NCBI GenBank assembly: GCA_934417455.1
Contig: CAKRWK010000085.1
Coordinates: 1-5,711 of the forward strand
From: an uncultured Eubacteriales bacterium
Lineage (GTDB): Bacteria; Bacillota; Clostridia; Oscillospirales; CAG-272
Length of the DNA: 5,711 nucleotides
Direction of reading: 5' to 3'
Shown: one piece after another, positions 1 through 5,711 of the stretch
How positions within the stretch are numbered: position 1 is the stretch's first letter
How the letters are laid out: every line of letters starts with the position of its first letter
Made by a program: the position numbers and the translations under genes
Notes under the pieces: model-generated
What the model was told of the DNA's origin: nothing
What the model saw: the letters and a program-made list of their open reading frames with translations, nothing else
Database searches by the model: none

Positions 1-773
1 CCGTAGATGAAGGACTCAATGCACTTTTTGACCTGGGCAAAAGAAAGATTGTCAATCTTCACGAACGGCGCAAGATACGTGTCAAAGGAGGAAAACGCCT
101 GCGCGCCCGCCCATTCGTTCTGCATGATACCGAGGAAGTTGACCATCTGGTTGCAGAGGGTGGCCAGATGGCGGGCGGGAGCGGAGGTGATTTTTCCCGT
201 AACGCCGCCGAGACCTTCCTGAATCAGTTGTTTCAGAGACCAACCGGCACAATATCCCGTCAGCATGGAAAGGTCATGCAGGTGAATATCCGCGTTTCTG
301 TGCGCATCGGCAATCTCGGAGTCGTAAATTTCGGAAAGCCAGTAGTTGGCGGTGATGGCGCCGGAGTTGCTGAGAATCAGGCCGCCGACGGAATAGGTGA
401 CGGTGGAGTTTTCCTTCACGCGCCAGTCAAGGTTCTTGAGGTAGTTATCCATCGTTTCCTGATAATTGATGAGCGTAGTACCGAGGTTACGGAGTTTTTC
501 TCTTTGCTTTCTATAGAGAATGTAGGCTTTCGCCACTTCATCGTAACCGGCACGGATCAGAACGGACTCGACGCTGTCCTGAATGGCTTCCACCGTAATT
601 TTACCGTCTTTGATTTTATCTTCAAAATCGGCCGTTACTTTCAGGGAAAGAAAGTCGATTATATCGGGATGGTATTGTTTTTCGCAGGCATCGAACGCCT
701 GCACGATAGCGTTTTTAATTTTCGACAGGTCGAAGTCAACAACTTTGCCGTCTCTTTTAACCACGTTGTACAT
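1..773 (-). CDS. nrdD: Anaerobic (class III) ribonucleoside-triphosphate reductase, N-terminal part
   Basis: Reduces ribonucleoside triphosphates to deoxyribonucleotides under anaerobic conditions, using a glycyl radical installed by NrdG. The frame stays open from the ATG at 773 to the window edge, giving 257 codons of a family usually about 700 aa or more. The glycyl-radical C-terminus is therefore outside. Residues 1 to about 90 are an ATP-cone (starts MYNVVKRDGKVVDFDLSKI), the nucleotide-sensing module controlling overall activity. From about residue 100 the reductase core begins, with GGLILSNSGAI near 130-140, ADIHLHDL near 161-168 and YCAGWSL at 174-180. Cys175 probably corresponds to the N-terminal active-site cysteine of the family. 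A Shine-Dalgarno AAAGGAT (781-787) lies 7 nt upstream of the ATG. The gene follows nrdG and has its own promoter with NrdR boxes. Family assignment is firm; nothing can be said about the missing part. Confidence 0.95.
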   Translation of the reverse strand, partial: MYNVVKRDGKVVDFDLSKIKNAIVQAFDACEKQYHPDIIDFLSLKVTADFEDKIKDGKITVEAIQDSVESVLIRAGYDEVAKAYILYRKQREKLRNLGTTLINYQETMDNYLKNLDWRVKENSTVTYSVGGLILSNSGAITANYWLSEIYDSEIADAHRNADIHLHDLSMLTGYCAGWSLKQLIQEGLGGVTGKITSAPARHLATLCNQMVNFLGIMQNEWAGAQAFSSFDTYLAPFVKIDNLSFAQVKKCIESFIY

Positions 774-829
774 AGCGGTAATCCTTTCATTTTTCACTTT
801 TTAACTTTGCGGCAAGCGCATGTGTCAGT

Positions 830-845
830 GCACAATATTATACTA
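830..845. promoter_or_regulatory. Possible NrdR half-site over the nrdD -10 region
   Basis: The first nine bases, GCACAATAT, are identical to the left half of NrdR box 1, but the right half (TATACTA) has diverged into the -10 hexamer. Its centre is 44 bp from the centre of box 1. It may be a weak third contact point for an NrdR oligomer, or a chance match in an AT-rich promoter. Confidence 0.3.
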
Positions 846-865
846 CCTTTGTTCCCGTTTGTCAA
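837..865 (-). promoter_or_regulatory. nrdD promoter, consensus sigma-70 type
   Basis: On the minus strand, TTGACA (860-865) and TATAAT (837-842) are separated by exactly 17 bp (843-859). Both hexamers match consensus perfectly. Transcription should start near 829-831, giving a 5' leader of about 57 nt before the nrdD ATG. The promoter lies in the gap between nrdG and nrdD, so nrdD can be transcribed independently of nrdG. Confidence 0.88.
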
Positions 866-873
866 TAGAAAAA

Positions 874-889
874 GCACAATATCTTGTGA
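874..889. promoter_or_regulatory. NrdR box 1 (promoter-proximal)
   Basis: GCACAATATCTTGTGA is a 16-bp near-palindrome matching the NrdR consensus (ACACwATATaTwGTGT-like). NrdR is the zinc-finger/ATP-cone repressor of bacterial ribonucleotide reductase genes. The site is centred about 51 bp upstream of the predicted nrdD transcription start, just upstream of the -35 hexamer. Its partner box lies 31 bp away start to start, with a 15-bp gap, the roughly three-helical-turn spacing typical of paired NrdR sites. Confidence 0.87.
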
Positions 890-904
890 TTTTTTTCACC
901 GGGA

Positions 905-920
905 CCACAAGATGTTGTGC
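905..920. promoter_or_regulatory. NrdR box 2 (promoter-distal)
   Basis: CCACAAGATGTTGTGC carries the CACAA...TTGTG arms of an NrdR box. It sits seven bases beyond the nrdG stop codon and 31 bp from box 1, on the same face of the helix. The pair predicts repression of nrdD by NrdR when dATP is high. The boxes lie upstream of, not over, the -35/-10 elements. Confidence 0.85.
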
Positions 921-927
921 TTTTCGT

Positions 928-1620
928 TCAACCGCGGATTTCGACACACGGAATATATTCCCGCGCATTTTCCGCCATGTTTTCCATGGTTTCGTCGTCG
1001 GCCGCCGAGAGCCCTCCGGGGGCTATCAGGTGACCGGAGTCGGTAAACCTTTGTAGGAAATAACGCGGTGCGGGCGCTATCGTTTTGGCCATTTGTTCTA
1101 TCCGGTTGACAGTGTGGTGCGGCAGTACCACCGTTGTCCGGAACTCATAGTCCACCGCACCGGAATGCAGGAATCGTATACTTTCGAGAATCGGCGCCGT
1201 ATCAAAATCGTCGATTCCGACTGTTTTTCCATACATTTCCATTGTATTTTTTATGTCCATTGCCACATAATCGACGAGTTTTTTTTCGCAAACCTCCCGC
1301 AGTTTGTCGGGGTAGGAGCCGTTTGTGTCCAGTTTGACGGGATAACCGAGCGACTTGACAGCCATGAGAAATTCTTCTATATCCTTTTGAAGCAAGGGTT
1401 CTCCGCCCGTGACGGCCACGCCGTCAAGCAATCCCCGCCGTGCTTTGAGATAAGCGAGCACGTCCTCCGTATCGTACGCCTCCTGCAGGCGAATATCCGT
1501 CACAAGGCCGGAATTGTGACAGAACGGACAGCGGAAATTACATCCGCCGGTAAAAACCGTCGCGGCGACTTTGCCCGGATAATCGAGCAGTGACATTTTC
1601 TGAAAACCGAGTATCAGCAT
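928..1620 (-). CDS. nrdG: Anaerobic ribonucleotide reductase activating protein (radical SAM)
   Basis: A radical-SAM activase of 230 aa that should cleave S-adenosylmethionine at a 4Fe-4S cluster and abstract hydrogen from the NrdD glycine to form its glycyl radical. Cluster cysteines are Cys27, Cys31 and Cys34 in GCNFRCPFCH (CX3CX2C). The SAM-binding GGEP motif is at 72-75. The opening MLILGFQKMSLLDYPGK is typical of the longer, roughly 230-aa NrdG-like family rather than the approximately 155-aa E. coli type. The start at 1620 fits this family opening and follows a purine-rich GGAAGAAG; an ATG 19 codons further upstream would add an unrelated tail that spans the predicted promoter. It lies immediately upstream of nrdD, separated by the NrdR-controlled promoter. 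Pyruvate formate-lyase activase is a related alternative, but the neighbour argues for NrdD. Confidence 0.9.
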   Translation of the reverse strand: MLILGFQKMSLLDYPGKVAATVFTGGCNFRCPFCHNSGLVTDIRLQEAYDTEDVLAYLKARRGLLDGVAVTGGEPLLQKDIEEFLMAVKSLGYPVKLDTNGSYPDKLREVCEKKLVDYVAMDIKNTMEMYGKTVGIDDFDTAPILESIRFLHSGAVDYEFRTTVVLPHHTVNRIEQMAKTIAPAPRYFLQRFTDSGHLIAPGGLSAADDETMENMAENAREYIPCVEIRG

Positions 1621-1638
1621 ATATATTCTTCTTCCGAA

Positions 1639-1668
1639 ATCATAGTTAAAGTAAATAACAGTTGTCAT
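1639..1668 (-). promoter_or_regulatory. Probable nrdG promoter
   Basis: On the minus strand, ATGACA (1663-1668) and TATGAT (1639-1644) are 18 bp apart, each matching 5 of 6 consensus bases. It follows directly after the terminator at 1676-1701, where a new promoter is expected. The predicted start near 1632 leaves only about 12 nt before the nrdG ATG, short but possible. No NrdR box is visible here, unlike at nrdD. Confidence 0.45.
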
Positions 1669-1675
1669 TACCGTC

Positions 1676-1701
1676 AAAAAGGCGCAAAAATGCGCCTTTT
1701 T
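1676..1701 (-). terminator. Intrinsic terminator after the 77-aa gene, nearly symmetric
   Basis: The arms AAAAAGGCGCA (1676-1686) and TGCGCCTTTTT (1691-1701) are perfectly complementary over 11 bp, around a 4-nt loop. Read on the minus strand, a T-run follows the G/C-rich core. It starts 20 nt beyond the stop codon of the small gene, so it ends that transcript and possibly readthrough from metQNI. Because of its symmetry it could also work on the plus strand. Confidence 0.87.
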
Positions 1702-1721
1702 GGGTGGGCAATGTGCCTTTG

Positions 1722-1955
1722 TCAGTTATGCTCGGAGAGCCATGTTTCCGCTGCCGCTTTGGAAAGGCGCTTGATGTCTTCCTTTTTGTAAGGAGACGCC
1801 TCGCCGCCGTTGGTATACACGAAATAGTTACCTTCGGCCGTGCGATACAGCGTTTCTTCATAACCGGCGGGGTCGCCGTACGTGCCGACGCTTGTCTTGC
1901 GGACAACCTCGGACGCGTCCGTGTCATAAAGTTTTTTGCAGATGACCTTTTTCAT
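1722..1955 (-). CDS. Conserved small hypothetical protein, 77 aa
   Basis: A small soluble protein with no signal peptide or membrane segment. It begins MKKVICKKLYDTDASE, then carries ETLYRTAEGNYFVYTNGG at about residues 33-50 and ends in a charged helix-like segment with WLSEHN. The pattern K-K-x-Y-D-T, E-x-LYR, G-x-(Y/F)F and GG resembles a family of short uncharacterised proteins common in Bacillota chromosomes and their mobile elements; that resemblance is from memory, and no function is known to me. The start is supported by a strong Shine-Dalgarno AAAGGAG (1963-1969) 7 nt before the ATG. It lies 79 bp after metI in the same direction and is closed by the terminator at 1676-1701, so it may be a distal member of the met transcript or a separate unit. 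Confidence 0.82.
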   Translation of the reverse strand: MKKVICKKLYDTDASEVVRKTSVGTYGDPAGYEETLYRTAEGNYFVYTNGGEASPYKKEDIKRLSKAAAETWLSEHN

Positions 1956-1984
1956 ATTTTTTCTCCTTTCGGTATTTTTCTTTC

Positions 1985-1990
1985 ATTATA
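1985..1990 (-). promoter_or_regulatory. Weak candidate -10 box for the 77-aa gene
   Basis: A perfect TATAAT on the minus strand lies 29 nt upstream of the small gene's ATG. The base positions 17 bp further upstream (2008-2013, GCTCTC) do not resemble a -35 hexamer and no extended -10 TG is present. It could be an activator-dependent promoter or a chance match. Confidence 0.28.
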
Positions 1991-1991
1991 G

Positions 1992-2028
1992 GCCGACCCG
2001 TGCGCGAGAGAGCGCGGATTTTGTCGGC
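1992..2028 (-). other. Imperfect stem-loop between metI and the 77-aa gene
   Basis: GCCGAC and GTCGGC (1992-1997 with 2023-2028) can pair over 6 bp, and inside them CGCG (2003-2006) can pair with CGCG (2013-2016) around a 6-nt loop. There is no T-run after it, so it does not look like a terminator. It might slow 3' decay of the metQNI part of a longer transcript; function is unknown. Confidence 0.35.
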
Positions 2029-2034
2029 ATGCCG

Positions 2035-2754
2035 TCATTTTTCCCCTTTGGCGTGTCTGATACGGCGGTCGAGCCGCACGGACAGGCAGGTACCGACAAA
2101 CTGAAAGACCTGCACAATGATAACGAGAAGGACGACGGCAAGGAACATGGTGACGTATTTATAGCGATAATATCCGTAGTTGATGGCAATGCTGCCAAGG
2201 CCGCCGCCGCCGATGATGCCGCTCATGGCGGAATAACCGAGCACGGTGGTAAGGGCAATGGTGAAATTCAGGATAAGGGACGGCATGGATTCGGGAATCA
2301 TGACTTTGACGATAATCTGAAACGGAGAGGCACCCATGCTTTCCGCCGCCTCTATGATGTTGGGATTGACTTCCCTGAGACTGCCCTCCGCCAGTCGCGC
2401 CACGAACGGGAACGCCGCCACGACAAGAGGAACAACGGTCGCCGCCGTGCCGATGGTCGTACCGATAATCAGTCTTGACAGGGGAAAAACCATAATCATC
2501 AGAATCAGAAACGGAACGGAACGCAACAGGTTGATAAGTCCGTTCAGAAGTTTCATAACGGGAGCGGGAAGCGGCAGAATACCGCCCTTATCTCCCGTGA
2601 CAAGCAGAACGCCGAGAGGCAACCCGATAAGCACGGCAAATACCGTAGACAAAAGCGTAACATACAGCGTTTCCCACGCGGCCTTCGGAAATTCGTTTTT
2701 TACTATATTCCACGCCAGAGCCCACGCCTCGGCCGAAAAGAATTTTTCGCTCAT
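2035..2754 (-). CDS. metI: Methionine ABC transporter permease MetI
   Basis: The integral-membrane subunit of the MetNIQ importer, forming the methionine channel as a dimer. It has 239 aa, slightly longer than E. coli MetI (about 217 aa) because of an N-terminal extension and a basic C-terminal tail. Hydrophobic segments lie roughly at residues 31-52, 78-95, 100-122, 157-182 and 201-223. The EAA coupling loop that docks on MetN is clear at 135-156 (EAAESMG...IP). NLLRSVPFLILM at 75-86 is also typical of the family. The ATG at 2754 follows a strong GGGAGGAG in the 17-bp gap after metN, so the two genes are surely co-transcribed and tightly coupled. No terminator follows directly. Confidence 0.95.
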   Translation of the reverse strand: MSEKFFSAEAWALAWNIVKNEFPKAAWETLYVTLLSTVFAVLIGLPLGVLLVTGDKGGILPLPAPVMKLLNGLINLLRSVPFLILMIMVFPLSRLIIGTTIGTAATVVPLVVAAFPFVARLAEGSLREVNPNIIEAAESMGASPFQIIVKVMIPESMPSLILNFTIALTTVLGYSAMSGIIGGGGLGSIAINYGYYRYKYVTMFLAVVLLVIIVQVFQFVGTCLSVRLDRRIRHAKGEK

Positions 2755-2771
2755 ATATGGTTCTCCTCCCG

Positions 2772-3770
<999 letters not shown>

Positions 3771-3787: not shown

Positions 3788-4639
3788 TTATTTGCGGATG
3801 TCATCGAGGGTGGTATGTGTTTTCGAGTAAATGCCCATCGGTTCGACGTGCACGGGGAGAACGGATACGATATGCGTGCCGTTTTCCTTGTTGAAGTCGT
3901 CAAGGTAGGGGGTATGCTGAAAGTAGTTGGCAAATTCCGCGCCGGATTCGACAGCGGTATTGGGCTGAACATAGTCGGTATAAACGGTAATCTGCAACGT
4001 CACGCCGCGCGCGGCCAGGATGGCTTTTGCCTCTTCGAGAATCTCGGCATGTGGCGTAGCGGATGCGGCTACGCGAATGACGGTGCCCTTCAGCGCATCG
4101 TAATCCACGGTGGCATCATAACCGTCGCCGGGGTTGTCAACCACGCTGAGAACGGCGCCGTTATATTTGTTCTGAATGAAGTTCTTCACCCGTTCCGAGG
4201 ACAGCGCGGCAACCAGCGCCTTTGTGCGCGGGTCATTCTCGTAGCCGGATTTCACGGCAAGAATGTTGGCATAAGCAGAGAAAGAACCTTCCACGCCGAG
4301 CGCATCCGCCGCCGGATTGATGCCGGCCTCAATAGCATAGTTGGAATTGATGACGGCAAAGTCCACATCGGAAAGCACACGCGGAAGTTGCGCGGCCTCC
4401 ACCTCGCGGAATTCAATGCCATAGGGATTGGACACGATGTCGCGCACCGTAGCGGTGATGCCTGCTTTTTTATCCAGCGTAATCAGCCCTTCGGCTTCCA
4501 GAAGAAGCAGGGCGCGGGCCTCATTGGTGGTGTCGTTCGGAATGGCAACGACGATTTTCTTTTCCCCGCAGGAAGCGAGAGAAAGAGCCGTACCGGCAAG
4601 CAGTACAAGGGTAAGAAGAAGGGCAACGATTTTTTTCAT
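3788..4639 (-). CDS. metQ: Methionine-binding lipoprotein MetQ, apparently circularly permuted
   Basis: The substrate-binding lipoprotein of the MetNIQ importer, 283 aa. Residues 1-23 are a signal peptide (MKK, hydrophobic core) with lipobox LASC and lipidated Cys24. The two halves are in swapped order compared with standard MetQ. The usual C-terminal half comes first (VAIPNDTTNEARALLLL at 31-47, EAAQLPR at 81-87, AVINSNYA at 95-102, NKYNGAV at 157-163). Then comes a linker of about 20 residues, then the usual N-terminal half (AASATPHAEILEEAK at 191-205, TDYVQPNTA at 221-229, NYFQHTPYLDDFN at 238-250, MGIYSK at 268-273), and it ends at TLDDIRK. Likely methionine contacts are kept: Tyr223, Phe240, His242, Tyr245, Arg42, Asn100, Asn125. 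The start at 4639 is set by the signal peptide and by GAGGAG (4649-4654). It is first in metQNI, behind the Met leader attenuator. The family is certain; the permutation is read from remembered family order. Confidence 0.93.
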   Translation of the reverse strand: MKKIVALLLTLVLLAGTALSLASCGEKKIVVAIPNDTTNEARALLLLEAEGLITLDKKAGITATVRDIVSNPYGIEFREVEAAQLPRVLSDVDFAVINSNYAIEAGINPAADALGVEGSFSAYANILAVKSGYENDPRTKALVAALSSERVKNFIQNKYNGAVLSVVDNPGDGYDATVDYDALKGTVIRVAASATPHAEILEEAKAILAARGVTLQITVYTDYVQPNTAVESGAEFANYFQHTPYLDDFNKENGTHIVSVLPVHVEPMGIYSKTHTTLDDIRK

Positions 4640-4668: not shown

Positions 4669-4701
4669 AAAAAAAGGCGGAGAGCCGATACGACTCTCCG
4701 C
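4669..4701 (-). terminator. Leader terminator (segments 3:4) ahead of metQ
   Basis: On the minus strand, GCGGAGAG (4694-4701, extended by TCG) pairs with CTCTCCGC (4677-4684, preceded by CGG). This gives 11 pairs including one U-G, around a 3-nt UAU loop. One C and seven U residues (4669-4675) follow. This is a strong factor-independent terminator placed between the promoter and metQ, so transcription of metQNI depends on preventing it. Confidence 0.93.
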
Positions 4702-4820
4702 AAACATTGATAAAAATGTTCATCGTCCGCTGTCAGCGGAGAGCGTTCGGTAAATGGGCATGAAGAAACATGCGCATGGACATTGCCATGTGCATCATCA
4801 TATCCATCATCATCGCTCTC
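4669..4820 (-). promoter_or_regulatory. Ribosome-mediated Met attenuator with segments 1, 2, 3 and 4
   Basis: Four RNA segments can pair in competing ways. Segment 1 GAGAGCG (4814-4820) is complementary over 7 bp to segment 2 CGCTCTC (4739-4745). Segment 2 CTCTCCGC (4736-4743) is complementary over 8 bp, plus a G-U, to segment 3 GCGGAGAG (4694-4701). Segment 3 pairs with segment 4 (4677-4687) as the terminator. Segment 1 covers leader codons 4-6, just before the Met run, and segment 2 covers the last codons up to the stop. A ribosome stalled at the Met codons would mask segment 1 and free segment 2 for 2:3 antitermination. A ribosome at the stop codon would cover segment 2 and allow termination. 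Inside the 2:3 loop, a small hairpin (GAACATT with AATGTTT) shortens the loop. The layout is that of trp/his attenuators, here for methionine uptake; function is inferred. Confidence 0.87.
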
Positions 4821-4831
4821 GAATTTTTCAA
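4733..4831 (-). CDS. Methionine-rich leader peptide of the metQNI attenuator, 32 aa
   Basis: A short reading frame from TTG (4829-4831) to TGA (4733-4735), using ten internal Met codons at positions 7-9, 11-13, 15, 17, 19 and 21. Residues 7-21 read MMMDMMMHMAMSMRM. The remainder (FLHAHLPNALR) is unremarkable. The TTG is chosen because AAAAGGAG (4841-4848) lies 9 nt upstream; the first ATG, at codon 7, would be 27 nt from it. The frame starts about 27 nt after the predicted transcription start and ends 93 nt before metQ. Its role should be to sense charged Met-tRNA by ribosome stalling, not to make a functional protein. A Met/His-rich metal-binding peptide is an alternative, but the alternative RNA pairings argue against it. 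Confidence 0.85.
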   Translation of the reverse strand: MKNSRAMMMDMMMHMAMSMRMFLHAHLPNALR

Positions 4832-4840
4832 CGGTCGGCG

Positions 4841-4848
4841 CTCCTTTT
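4841..4848 (-). promoter_or_regulatory. Ribosome binding site of the leader peptide
   Basis: AAAAGGAG on the minus strand lies 9 nt before TTG at 4829-4831. It decides the unusual TTG start and places codons 4-6 over attenuator segment 1. The metQ site (GAGGAG, 4649-4654) has the same 9-nt spacing. Confidence 0.75.
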
Positions 4849-4864
4849 CGATAAGAATGGAGAG

Positions 4865-4893
4865 ATTATAGCACATGTTATGTCGTTTGTCAA
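4865..4893 (-). promoter_or_regulatory. metQNI promoter, consensus sigma-70 type
   Basis: TTGACA (4888-4893) and TATAAT (4865-4870) on the minus strand are 17 bp apart (4871-4887), both perfect. The start of transcription is expected near 4858-4859, leaving a leader of about 220 nt before metQ. A strong unregulated-looking promoter fits control by attenuation downstream. Its -35 region, TTGACAAACG, matches the nrdD promoter for ten bases. Confidence 0.92.
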
Positions 4894-4939: not shown

Positions 4940-5711
4940 TCAGACGTTTTTCCGATAAACAAAAAGACGGAAATGAAACGGTGTTGTCACCTCAGTAAGT
5001 GCGGCAACGCGCGCACATCCTTCGGCCGATGTGCGGTAAGCGTACGGCGTCATGCCGAAAAGGTTTTCGATAACGTCGTGTCCCCGAAGGGTTACGTCCC
5101 GCCGGATTTCCTCTGAAGAGAGGAGAGAGAAACCGGGCAAACGCGAATCGGCGACCGTATTATAGTATGGCGTTTCGTACAGCACTTTTTTCAGTCCGAA
5201 AAGATGTTCCCTCTCCGGGATGGCCATGAGAAAGACGCCGCCCGGCTTCAGTACGCGCAGAATTTCTTCCGTCGCGAGCGGCGCGAACATATTGACCGCC
5301 ACGTCGACGCTCTCCGTCCGCACAGGCATGTGATAGGCCCCTGCCACAAACAGCCGCAGCCGACGGTTACGCCCCGCGGCATAGCGCACGGCTTCCTTCG
5401 ATATATCGAACGCGTATACGTCTGCCGCGCGGCCGGCACCGGACAGCACGCGCTCCATGCGGTCGGTATAGAAGCACTCCCCCGCCCCGCCATCGAGCAA
5501 AACACCGCTCTCGGGCACATAGCGGAGAACCTCTCGGCAGACCGCGTCCGAAAGCATGTCATAATACCCGCCGCCCAAAAATGCCCGACGGCAAAGCACC
5601 ATACGGCGGTTGTCGCCGTGCGTGCCGCCGTGCCCCGACAGAAGCAGGTTGATGTATCCCTCTCTCGCGCGGTCAAACGAGTGCCCAGCCGGGCATACCG
5701 CCCGGCGGTCT
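4940..5711 (-). CDS. rlmA: 23S rRNA (guanine-N1) methyltransferase RlmA, 5' end cut off
   Basis: A SAM-dependent methyltransferase that modifies N1 of a guanine in 23S rRNA helix 35 (G745 for the E. coli type, G748 for the type found in many Gram-positive bacteria). 256 codons are visible; E. coli RlmA has 269, so only about 10-20 N-terminal residues are missing. The visible part opens with the second half of the zinc ribbon, VCPAGHSFDRAREGYINLLL, with Cys6 and His10 as probable zinc ligands. The first Cys pair lies outside. The SAM-binding motif LLDGGAGECFYT is at about 71-82, FDIS at 101-104, MFAPLATEE near 141-149, LKPGG near 154-158 and MTPYAY near 220-225. An ATG at 5602 is an internal Met, not the start. 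No clear terminator separates it from the met promoter 46 bp downstream. Which guanine is methylated cannot be told. Confidence 0.93.
   Translation of the reverse strand, partial: DRRAVCPAGHSFDRAREGYINLLLSGHGGTHGDNRRMVLCRRAFLGGGYYDMLSDAVCREVLRYVPESGVLLDGGAGECFYTDRMERVLSGAGRAADVYAFDISKEAVRYAAGRNRRLRLFVAGAYHMPVRTESVDVAVNMFAPLATEEILRVLKPGGVFLMAIPEREHLFGLKKVLYETPYYNTVADSRLPGFSLLSSEEIRRDVTLRGHDVIENLFGMTPYAYRTSAEGCARVAALTEVTTPFHFRLFVYRKNV

What the first reader, a model, noticed from the sequence alone, without database searches (positions are those of the whole stretch)
4669..4831. Met-codon leader peptide with complete trp-like attenuator controlling methionine importer genes
Seen: a consensus promoter, a ribosome binding site, a 32-codon ORF with ten internal Met codons in a 15-codon stretch, and three mutually exclusive pairings (1:2 of 7 bp, 2:3 of 8-9 bp, 3:4 of 11 bp with a 7-U tail). 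The geometry fits: stalling at any of the Met codons (4769-4813) leaves segment 2 (4736-4745) free, whereas a ribosome at the stop codon (4733-4735) covers it. Known: classical leader-peptide attenuators respond to Trp, His, Thr, Ile/Val/Leu and Phe, while methionine genes in Bacillota are usually under S-box or T-box RNAs. Inferred: this is a Met-sensing ribosome-mediated attenuator, a class I do not know to be well described.
Basis: partly seen in the sequence, partly recalled or inferred. Interest (0 to 1): 0.93.

Follow-up and report, generated by a model that had tools for sequence, protein, structure and literature searches.

The report
Methionine-codon attenuator for methionine uptake genes
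A 32-codon reading frame holding ten methionine codons lies just in front of genes that look like a methionine importer, and together with two competing predicted RNA hairpins that recur in relatives it likely switches those genes on when methionine runs short.

Summary
In detail: a perfect promoter, an SD, a TTG-started 32-codon ORF with ten Met codons in 15, and an 11-bp terminator with a 7-U tail precede metQ-metN-metI-like genes (minus strand). The antiterminator 2:3 is longer than described (15 bp, through the terminator loop). Comparison supports a Met-codon, ribosome-mediated transcription attenuator. Met-rich leader frames precede metQ in 25 of 80 related loci; frames with six or more Met in 15 codons occur there 22 times, and 5 times in the rest of 625 kb. 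A leader-peptide profile gave 28 places in 1,088 genome scans: 16 before metQ/metN, 9 metY, 1 nifS, 1 contig end, 1 spurious. It is scattered, not common (4 true genomes of 391 in a class-wide draw). Nine other metQ loci carry a T-box reading AUG; none of the 80 has both. Terminators: 23 of 25 with the leader, 6 of 35 with no known leader type. Most relatives add Cys codons; the window does not. The 1:2 pairing is not established; response to methionine is unmeasured. Methionine leaders were proposed in Campylobacter and Streptomyces; nine paper searches listed none in Bacillota. Verdict: new variant of the classical attenuator.

The parts
4888..4893 (-). -35 hexamer TTGACA
   Evidence: consensus scan (12 of 12 with the -10)
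4865..4870 (-). -10 hexamer TATAAT (with upstream TG); transcript predicted to start near 4858
   Evidence: start site inferred from spacing
4841..4846 (-). Shine-Dalgarno AAGGAG of the leader ORF, 9 nt before the TTG
   Evidence: read directly
4733..4831 (-). leader ORF, TTG start, 32 codons, ten internal Met codons, stop TGA 4735-4733
   Evidence: relatives
4769..4813 (-). Met-codon run: ten AUG in 15 codons (predicted regulatory codons)
   Evidence: codon positions; rarity
4814..4820 (-). segment 1, GAGAGCG, can pair with CGCUCUC 4745-4739 (7 bp); role as protector not established
   Evidence: z -1.5, p 0.09
4736..4750 (-). segment 2, CCGAACGCUCUCCGC, last codons of the leader ORF
   Evidence: 2:3 energy -25.7, z -3.7
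4685..4701 (-). segment 3, GCGGAGAGUCGUAUCGG: 5' arm, loop and first 3 nt of the 3' arm; partner of segment 2 in the predicted antiterminator
4677..4701 (-). intrinsic terminator hairpin (segments 3:4), 11 bp, loop of 3
4669..4675 (-). run of seven T/U after the terminator
3788..4639 (-). metQ-like lipoprotein (283 aa; halves in circularly permuted order)
2772..3770 (-). metN-like ATPase with NIL domain
2035..2754 (-). metI-like permease

Best explanation
The 32-codon ORF at 4831-4733 (minus strand), which holds ten Met codons in 15, together with a predicted antiterminator (segments 2:3) and a predicted terminator (3:4), most likely forms a ribosome-mediated transcription attenuator that would raise read-through into the metQ-metN-metI-like genes when charged elongator tRNA-Met is scarce. 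Proposed steps, all inferred: RNA polymerase makes the leader while a ribosome follows. With enough Met-tRNA the ribosome reaches the stop codon, covers segment 2, and 3:4 ends transcription. With too little, it stalls at an AUG codon; segment 2 begins 20 nt downstream of the start of the last AUG and stays free, pairs with segment 3 before segment 4 emerges, and transcription continues. Shown by sequence and calls: the anatomy, its recurrence with changing sequence, its tie to methionine genes, and that AUG-reading T-boxes stand at the same gene in relatives without it. Not shown: translation, termination, and the response to methionine.
For: Anatomy. Met-rich leader frames before metQ in 25 of 80 loci (4 or more Met in 15 codons); ATG inside 31 leaders by frame 221/18/1. 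Profile searches in 391+344+118+115+120 genome scans gave 28 distinct places at E<=0.01: 16 metQ/metN, 9 metY, 1 nifS, 1 contig end, 1 spurious. Terminator 23 of 25 with leader, 6 of 35 without any known leader type. 2:3 pairing: 31 leaders median z -1.8, 16 of 31 p<=0.05; own segment among the best 5 of 22 in 18 of 22; 18 held-out leaders median z -1.3, 5 of 18 p<=0.05. Aligned subgroup of 12: 2:3 paired in 97.7% of cells, at most 59.2% when slid, two pairs with a change on both sides, one sequence each. Window model: with segment 4 not yet made, 2:3 forms (P 1.00) for stalls at the 1st, 5th and last Met, and not (0.00) with the ribosome at the stop. Nine relatives carry a T-box with GAAC-AUG-G; none of the 80 loci has both.
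Against: No expression data. A first form of the 2:3 test, with the 5' arm alone as target, showed no signal (7 of 31 p<0.05, median z -0.2); the successful form was chosen after looking, so the held-out set is the fair test, and it is weaker. Four of 22 representatives rank below the best five (L010 8th, L047 20th, L074 18th, L076 16th). 1:2 is weak (8 of 31 p<=0.05), and in the window model 2:3 forms even with no ribosome (P 1.00), so without 1:2 an untranslated leader would read through. At equilibrium 3:4 wins in every state (P>=0.96), so the switch must be kinetic. MetQ, MetN and MetI match methionine models best but below NCBI's cut-offs. In 7 of 31 leaders the segment 2 found starts less than 14 nt after the start of the last Met codon. 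Terminators without Met codons occur in 6 of 35 and 5 of 11 relatives. In L105 the leader frame runs through the terminator.
Confidence: 0.87

Rival explanations
1. The same attenuator anatomy, but the ribosome is arrested by the nascent peptide binding a small molecule (TnaC-like), not by hungry Met codons.
For: Leader peptides share Met-rich patterns such as MxMCMxxMCM.
Against: Apart from Met the residues, spacing and length vary (A1 mean column identity 34%); Met-codon density, not a fixed motif, is the constant; Met-specific T-boxes stand in the same place in relatives.
Confidence: 0.05
2. A multivalent sulphur-amino-acid attenuator that senses cysteine as well as methionine.
For: 29 of 31 leaders contain Cys codons, 9.5% of residues; one leader precedes nifS.
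Against: The window's leader and that of L050 have no Cys codon, so for this window methionine alone can be read by codon. Part of the TGC excess may come from AUG-UGC-AUG self-pairing (inferred, not tested).
Confidence: 0.05
3. The ORF encodes a functional Met/His-rich small protein, for example a metal binder, and the terminator is incidental.
For: Met-, Cys- and His-rich composition.
Against: No Pfam or NCBIfam match for the window's peptide and none that matters for two relatives; tied to a terminator and to methionine genes; two leaders lack Cys.
Confidence: 0.02
4. An untranslated regulatory RNA (S-box, T-box or an unknown riboswitch), the ORF being accidental.
For: Such RNAs control methionine genes in Bacillota (PMC3771891, passages).
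Against: No Rfam match in the window and no riboswitch match in the 25 leader loci; in-frame ATG 221 against 19 out of frame.
Confidence: 0.01

Closest known systems
Classical ribosome-mediated transcription attenuators (trp, his, ilv, leu; in Bacillota Listeria rli60-ilv and hisS/hisZ leaders of bacilli)
   Same: Short ORF with codons of the pathway's amino acid, then alternative antiterminator and intrinsic terminator before the operon (PMC5864092 and PMC2965389, passages).
   Different: The amino acid is methionine; an importer (and in relatives metY) is controlled; regulatory codons are very dense (mean 7.1 per leader, ten here); the 1:2 protector is not established.
Campylobacter jejuni MetL (before metBA) and CJsORF19 MMYQMR (before a metQ homologue)
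   Same: Proposed methionine leader peptides, one of them before a methionine-binding protein gene (PMC3847290 and PMC11955535, passages).
   Different: 20 aa with 3 Met codons, or 6 aa; another phylum; MetL was found only in C. jejuni, C. coli and C. doylei.
Streptomyces lividans metL before metNIQ
   Same: A leader peptide before a methionine importer, filed as an attenuator (PMC8079986, passages).
   Different: Leaderless, 29 aa with two internal Met codons by my reading, and no typical terminator found by its authors. Its end CRRMCAF resembles the second uORF noted below more than the Met-rich leader.
Methionine T-box riboswitch
   Same: Senses tRNA-Met charging at methionine genes; nine metQ relatives here have one with an AUG specifier.
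   Different: Binds tRNA directly without a leader peptide; the S. aureus one prefers initiator tRNA (PMC3771891, passages), whereas internal AUG codons need elongator tRNA-Met.

Membership tests
Ribosome-mediated (trp-type) transcription attenuator | promoter and leader transcript in front of genes for the amino acid sensed | tested here: met
   metQNI best match methionine transporter models, though below NCBI cut-offs
Ribosome-mediated (trp-type) transcription attenuator | short translatable ORF with SD | tested here: met
   SD AAGGAG and TTG start; in relatives the starts were chosen by best SD match, so that is not independent; translation itself not tested
Ribosome-mediated (trp-type) transcription attenuator | run of codons for the sensed amino acid | tested here: met
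   ten Met in 15 codons; enrichment
Ribosome-mediated (trp-type) transcription attenuator | intrinsic terminator after the ORF | tested here: met
Ribosome-mediated (trp-type) transcription attenuator | antiterminator that excludes the terminator and is masked by a ribosome at the stop | tested here: met
   (in silico; first form of the test was negative)
Ribosome-mediated (trp-type) transcription attenuator | 1:2 pause/protector hairpin | tested here: inconclusive
Ribosome-mediated (trp-type) transcription attenuator | read-through rises when the cognate tRNA is uncharged | not testable with these tools
   needs reporter or term-seq
T-box riboswitch | match to the T-box covariance model | tested here: not met
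   no Rfam match in the window
SAM (S-box) riboswitch | match to SAM riboswitch models | tested here: not met
   no Rfam match in the window

The most novel reading that the evidence does not exclude
Clostridia and their kin use a taxonomically scattered sulphur-amino-acid attenuator class, read by elongator tRNA-Met (and in most members also by Cys codons), that takes the place of the Met T-box at methionine uptake and synthesis genes, and in many members it works in tandem with a second regulatory ORF whose end is fixed at codons CGA-AUG before a stop or Cys codon.
Probability: 0.5. Interest if true: 0.82.

Novelty: new variant of a known kind. Interest (0 to 1): 0.7.

Why it matters
Amino-acid attenuators are textbook, but in Bacillota methionine genes are thought of as the domain of S-box and T-box RNAs. 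Here a leader ORF with up to eleven internal Met codons, built from changing sequences around the same logic, recurs before methionine uptake and synthesis genes in scattered, mostly uncultured bacteria. It gives a clean case of two unrelated RNA devices (T-box and leader peptide) standing at one gene for the same signal. It also raises the question of how a cell separates elongator from initiator tRNA-Met shortage.

Tried and rejected
2:3 test with the terminator's 5' arm alone as target: no signal; kept as a negative result. Whole-genome look at the window's own organism: none is held. NCBIfam scan of two leader and three second-uORF peptides: nothing but one chance hit at E 0.34. G343 hit (E 0.003): lies opposite another gene, taken as spurious. 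Weak hits in G009, G012 and G018 at E 0.3-0.5 appear to lie in or opposite other ORFs. Nine paper searches on Met-codon leaders and one on the permuted MetQ listed nothing on a Met-codon attenuator in Bacillota; these are listings, some cut (20 of 106, 25 of 50, 25 of 87, 15 of 17, 12 of 15, 12 of 117). Most subscription papers are not in that library, and Rodionov 2004 on methionine in Gram-positives is recalled, not read. C. jejuni PMC3656092 holds none of the terms searched. Xanthomonas met 5'UTR (PMC6230763, passages) does not hold the term leader peptide.

Full report
What is there. The genes read on the minus strand. A perfect sigma-70-type promoter (4893-4865) is followed by an SD and a TTG-started ORF of 32 codons with ten Met codons in codons 7-21. 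Then come an 11-bp GC-rich hairpin with seven U and, 37 nt beyond the hairpin, the start of a MetQ-like lipoprotein gene, then metN- and metI-like genes. Two corrections: the start codon is TTG, and the antiterminator pairing runs through the terminator loop (CCGAACGCUCUCCGC with GCGGAGAGUCGUAUCGG, 15 pairs, -25.7 kcal/mol) and is not limited to 8-9 bp.

Is it more than chance? One scan for relatives of MetQ kept the best 80 of 315 matching stretches. In 25 of 80 the 450 nt before metQ hold a frame with four or more Met in 15 codons. At six or more Met, 22 such places lie before metQ and 5 in all the rest of 625,316 bases in six frames. In 31 leaders (25 metQ, 5 metY, the window) ATG falls in frame 221 times and out of frame 19 times. 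Leader starts were chosen by best SD match, so the SDs are not independent evidence; the leader of L063 is cut by the start of its contig. In 26 of 31 leaders a hairpin before a T run was found automatically 22-51 nt after the stop (that of L076 is weak, -7.6 kcal/mol); five were set by hand, and in one of these, L105, the leader frame runs through the terminator.

What does it go with? A profile of leader peptides was searched through whole genomes: 391 of one class, 344 of one order, and 118, 115 and 120 of three families, 1,088 scans with some genomes seen twice. Genomes with a match were 5, 2, 12, 3 and 4, so the element is scattered and not common; the profile is also not fully sensitive, missing 6 of 25 genomes known to have a leader. 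The searches gave 28 distinct places at E<=0.01. Sixteen precede metQ or metN, nine metY (O-acetylhomoserine sulfhydrylase, TIGR01326 over its cut-off for L100), one nifS, one lies at a contig end and one is spurious. Four of the 28 (G011, G012, two in G018) belong to leaders used to build the models; of the other 24, 22 precede methionine or sulphur genes. The four metN cases match ABC_MetN best and carry the NIL domain. In the nifS case a short ORF between leader and nifS looked CysK-like by eye but has no family match. In the 25 genomes of the metQ leaders, 19 gave a match at E<=1; the 20 strong places are one before metQ in each of the 19 and one before metY in G018. Of those 25 genomes, 19 also have a SAM riboswitch somewhere.

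The exchange with the T-box. All 80 metQ loci were compared with Rfam. Nine have a T-box, and all nine read GAAC-AUG-G where the specifier codon lies (the place of the specifier is recalled knowledge applied to one printed alignment). None of the nine has a Met leader, none of the 25 leader loci has a T-box, and no SAM riboswitch was found in any of the 80 loci. The genomes of the nine gave no profile match (a call without a positive control). So the same gene is put under tRNA-Met charging by another device in relatives. This is the strongest argument that the leader reads Met-tRNA.

The pairings. The first test of 2:3, with the 5' arm alone, was negative. With the target extended through the loop, 16 of 31 leaders reach p<=0.05 and the median z is -1.8; in 18 of 22 representatives the leader's own segment ranks among the best five of 22. 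As this form was chosen after looking, 18 new leaders were tested: median z -1.3, 5 of 18 p<=0.05, combined z -4.9 (the leaders are related, so the combined figure is too good; for L131 the automatic terminator was plainly wrong and was left in). In twelve aligned leaders 2:3 is paired in 97.7% of cells and at most 59.2% when slid, with two pairs changed on both sides in one sequence each, while five of the eleven pairs never vary in one helix; 3:4 is paired in 91.0%. The Met codons and the terminator go together: 23 of 25 against 6 of 35 for loci with no known leader type, 5 of 11 for loci with only the second uORF, 4 of 9 for T-box loci.

The mechanism in the window. Segment 2 begins 20 nt after the start of the last AUG. 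A simple model puts free RNA 14 nt past the A site. Before segment 4 is made, 2:3 forms for a ribosome stalled at the first, fifth or last Met and not for one at the stop codon. Once the whole leader exists, 3:4 wins in all states, so the decision must be made during transcription, as in known attenuators. The model does not support 1:2: without a ribosome 2:3 still forms. Across 31 leaders 1:2 is weak (8 of 31), and in several relatives the partner of segment 2 is the leader's own SD (AGGAGAAC with GUUCUCC), which may be incidental or may couple 1:2 to leader translation.

Methionine only, or sulphur amino acids? Met makes up 21.2% and Cys 9.5% of leader residues; 29 of 31 leaders have Cys codons. 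The window has none, so for it Met is the only sulphur amino acid that codons can read.

Against what is known. The anatomy is that of the classical attenuator; such leaders are known in Bacillota for ilv in Listeria (PMC5864092, passages) and proposed for hisS/hisZ in bacilli (PMC2965389, passages). Methionine leaders have been proposed: C. jejuni MetL with three Met codons (PMC3847290, passages), MMYQMR before a metQ homologue (PMC11955535, passages) and S. lividans metL before metNIQ without a typical terminator (PMC8079986, passages). A 2005 survey of Actinobacteria found no conserved RNA structure at methionine operons (PMC1262725, passages). What is new here, as far as those searches show, is the complete anatomy, its recurrence across families, the spread to metY, and the exchange with the AUG T-box; hence 'new variant of a known kind'.

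A second leader ORF. Many relatives, not the window, have between terminator and gene a second short ORF ending in Arg-Met before stop or Cys. CGAATGT occurs 26 times in the 250 nt before the 80 metQ genes, against a mean of 0.94 for permuted heptamers (the heptamer was chosen after looking); 20 of 80 loci have such an ORF by the script's rule, 9 of them together with the Met leader. A pattern for N-[FY]-R-F-G-[R/S]-M with the Arg/Ser codon left free hit 15 places in 12 of 341 genomes, reversed control none; all 15 use CGA, and all lie before metY (12) or metQ (3). It deserves its own study.

Noticed in passing
L112, L116, L118, L121, L122, L123 and others; in metQ loci L053, L056, L063, L007, L028, L068, L069: A second short ORF, typically ..NFRFGRM* or ..RMC.., right before metY or metQ, with the codon pair CGA-AUG invariant in 15 of 15 pattern hits although other Arg codons were allowed. 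S. lividans metL ends CRRMCAF, which looks similar.
   Followed up: partly
window 3788-4639: MetQ is circularly permuted: residues 31-164 match the C-terminal half and 187-282 the N-terminal half of a solved MetQ-like protein (4ib2). Of the 120 relatives listed, 39 are about 380-445 aa long; the three such proteins read (P0002, P0003, P0012) carry three halves (C-N-C twice, N-C-N), as expected of intermediates of permutation by duplication. One paper search listed nothing on it.
   Followed up: partly
L053, L100, L104, L106, L108, L111, L114, L121, L122, L123 (promoter region): Promoters of the metY and some metQ leaders hold a repeated TACCTA / TAGGTA palindrome around the -35 and just after the -10 (e.g. 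ACCTATTGACAAGGTAGG ... ACCAACCTAAACGATAGGTAA), likely a repressor operator in addition to the attenuator (read by eye).
   Followed up: no
L145, minus strand, about 536-3000: A Met/Cys leader with terminator and second uORF stands before a short ORF and nifS-nifU-like genes: the only profile hit with a known downstream gene outside metQNI/metY (nifU read by eye).
   Followed up: partly
window 837-865: A second perfect TTGACA-17-TATAAT promoter on the minus strand before nrdD.
   Followed up: no
L024, L026, L039, L040 near 3.7-3.9 kb: TwoAYGGAY RNA between the T-box and metQ, on the minus strand in three loci and on the plus strand in L040.
   Followed up: no
window 4940-5602: Upstream gene on the same strand resembles the 23S rRNA (guanine-745) methyltransferase family, below NCBI's cut-off.
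   Followed up: no
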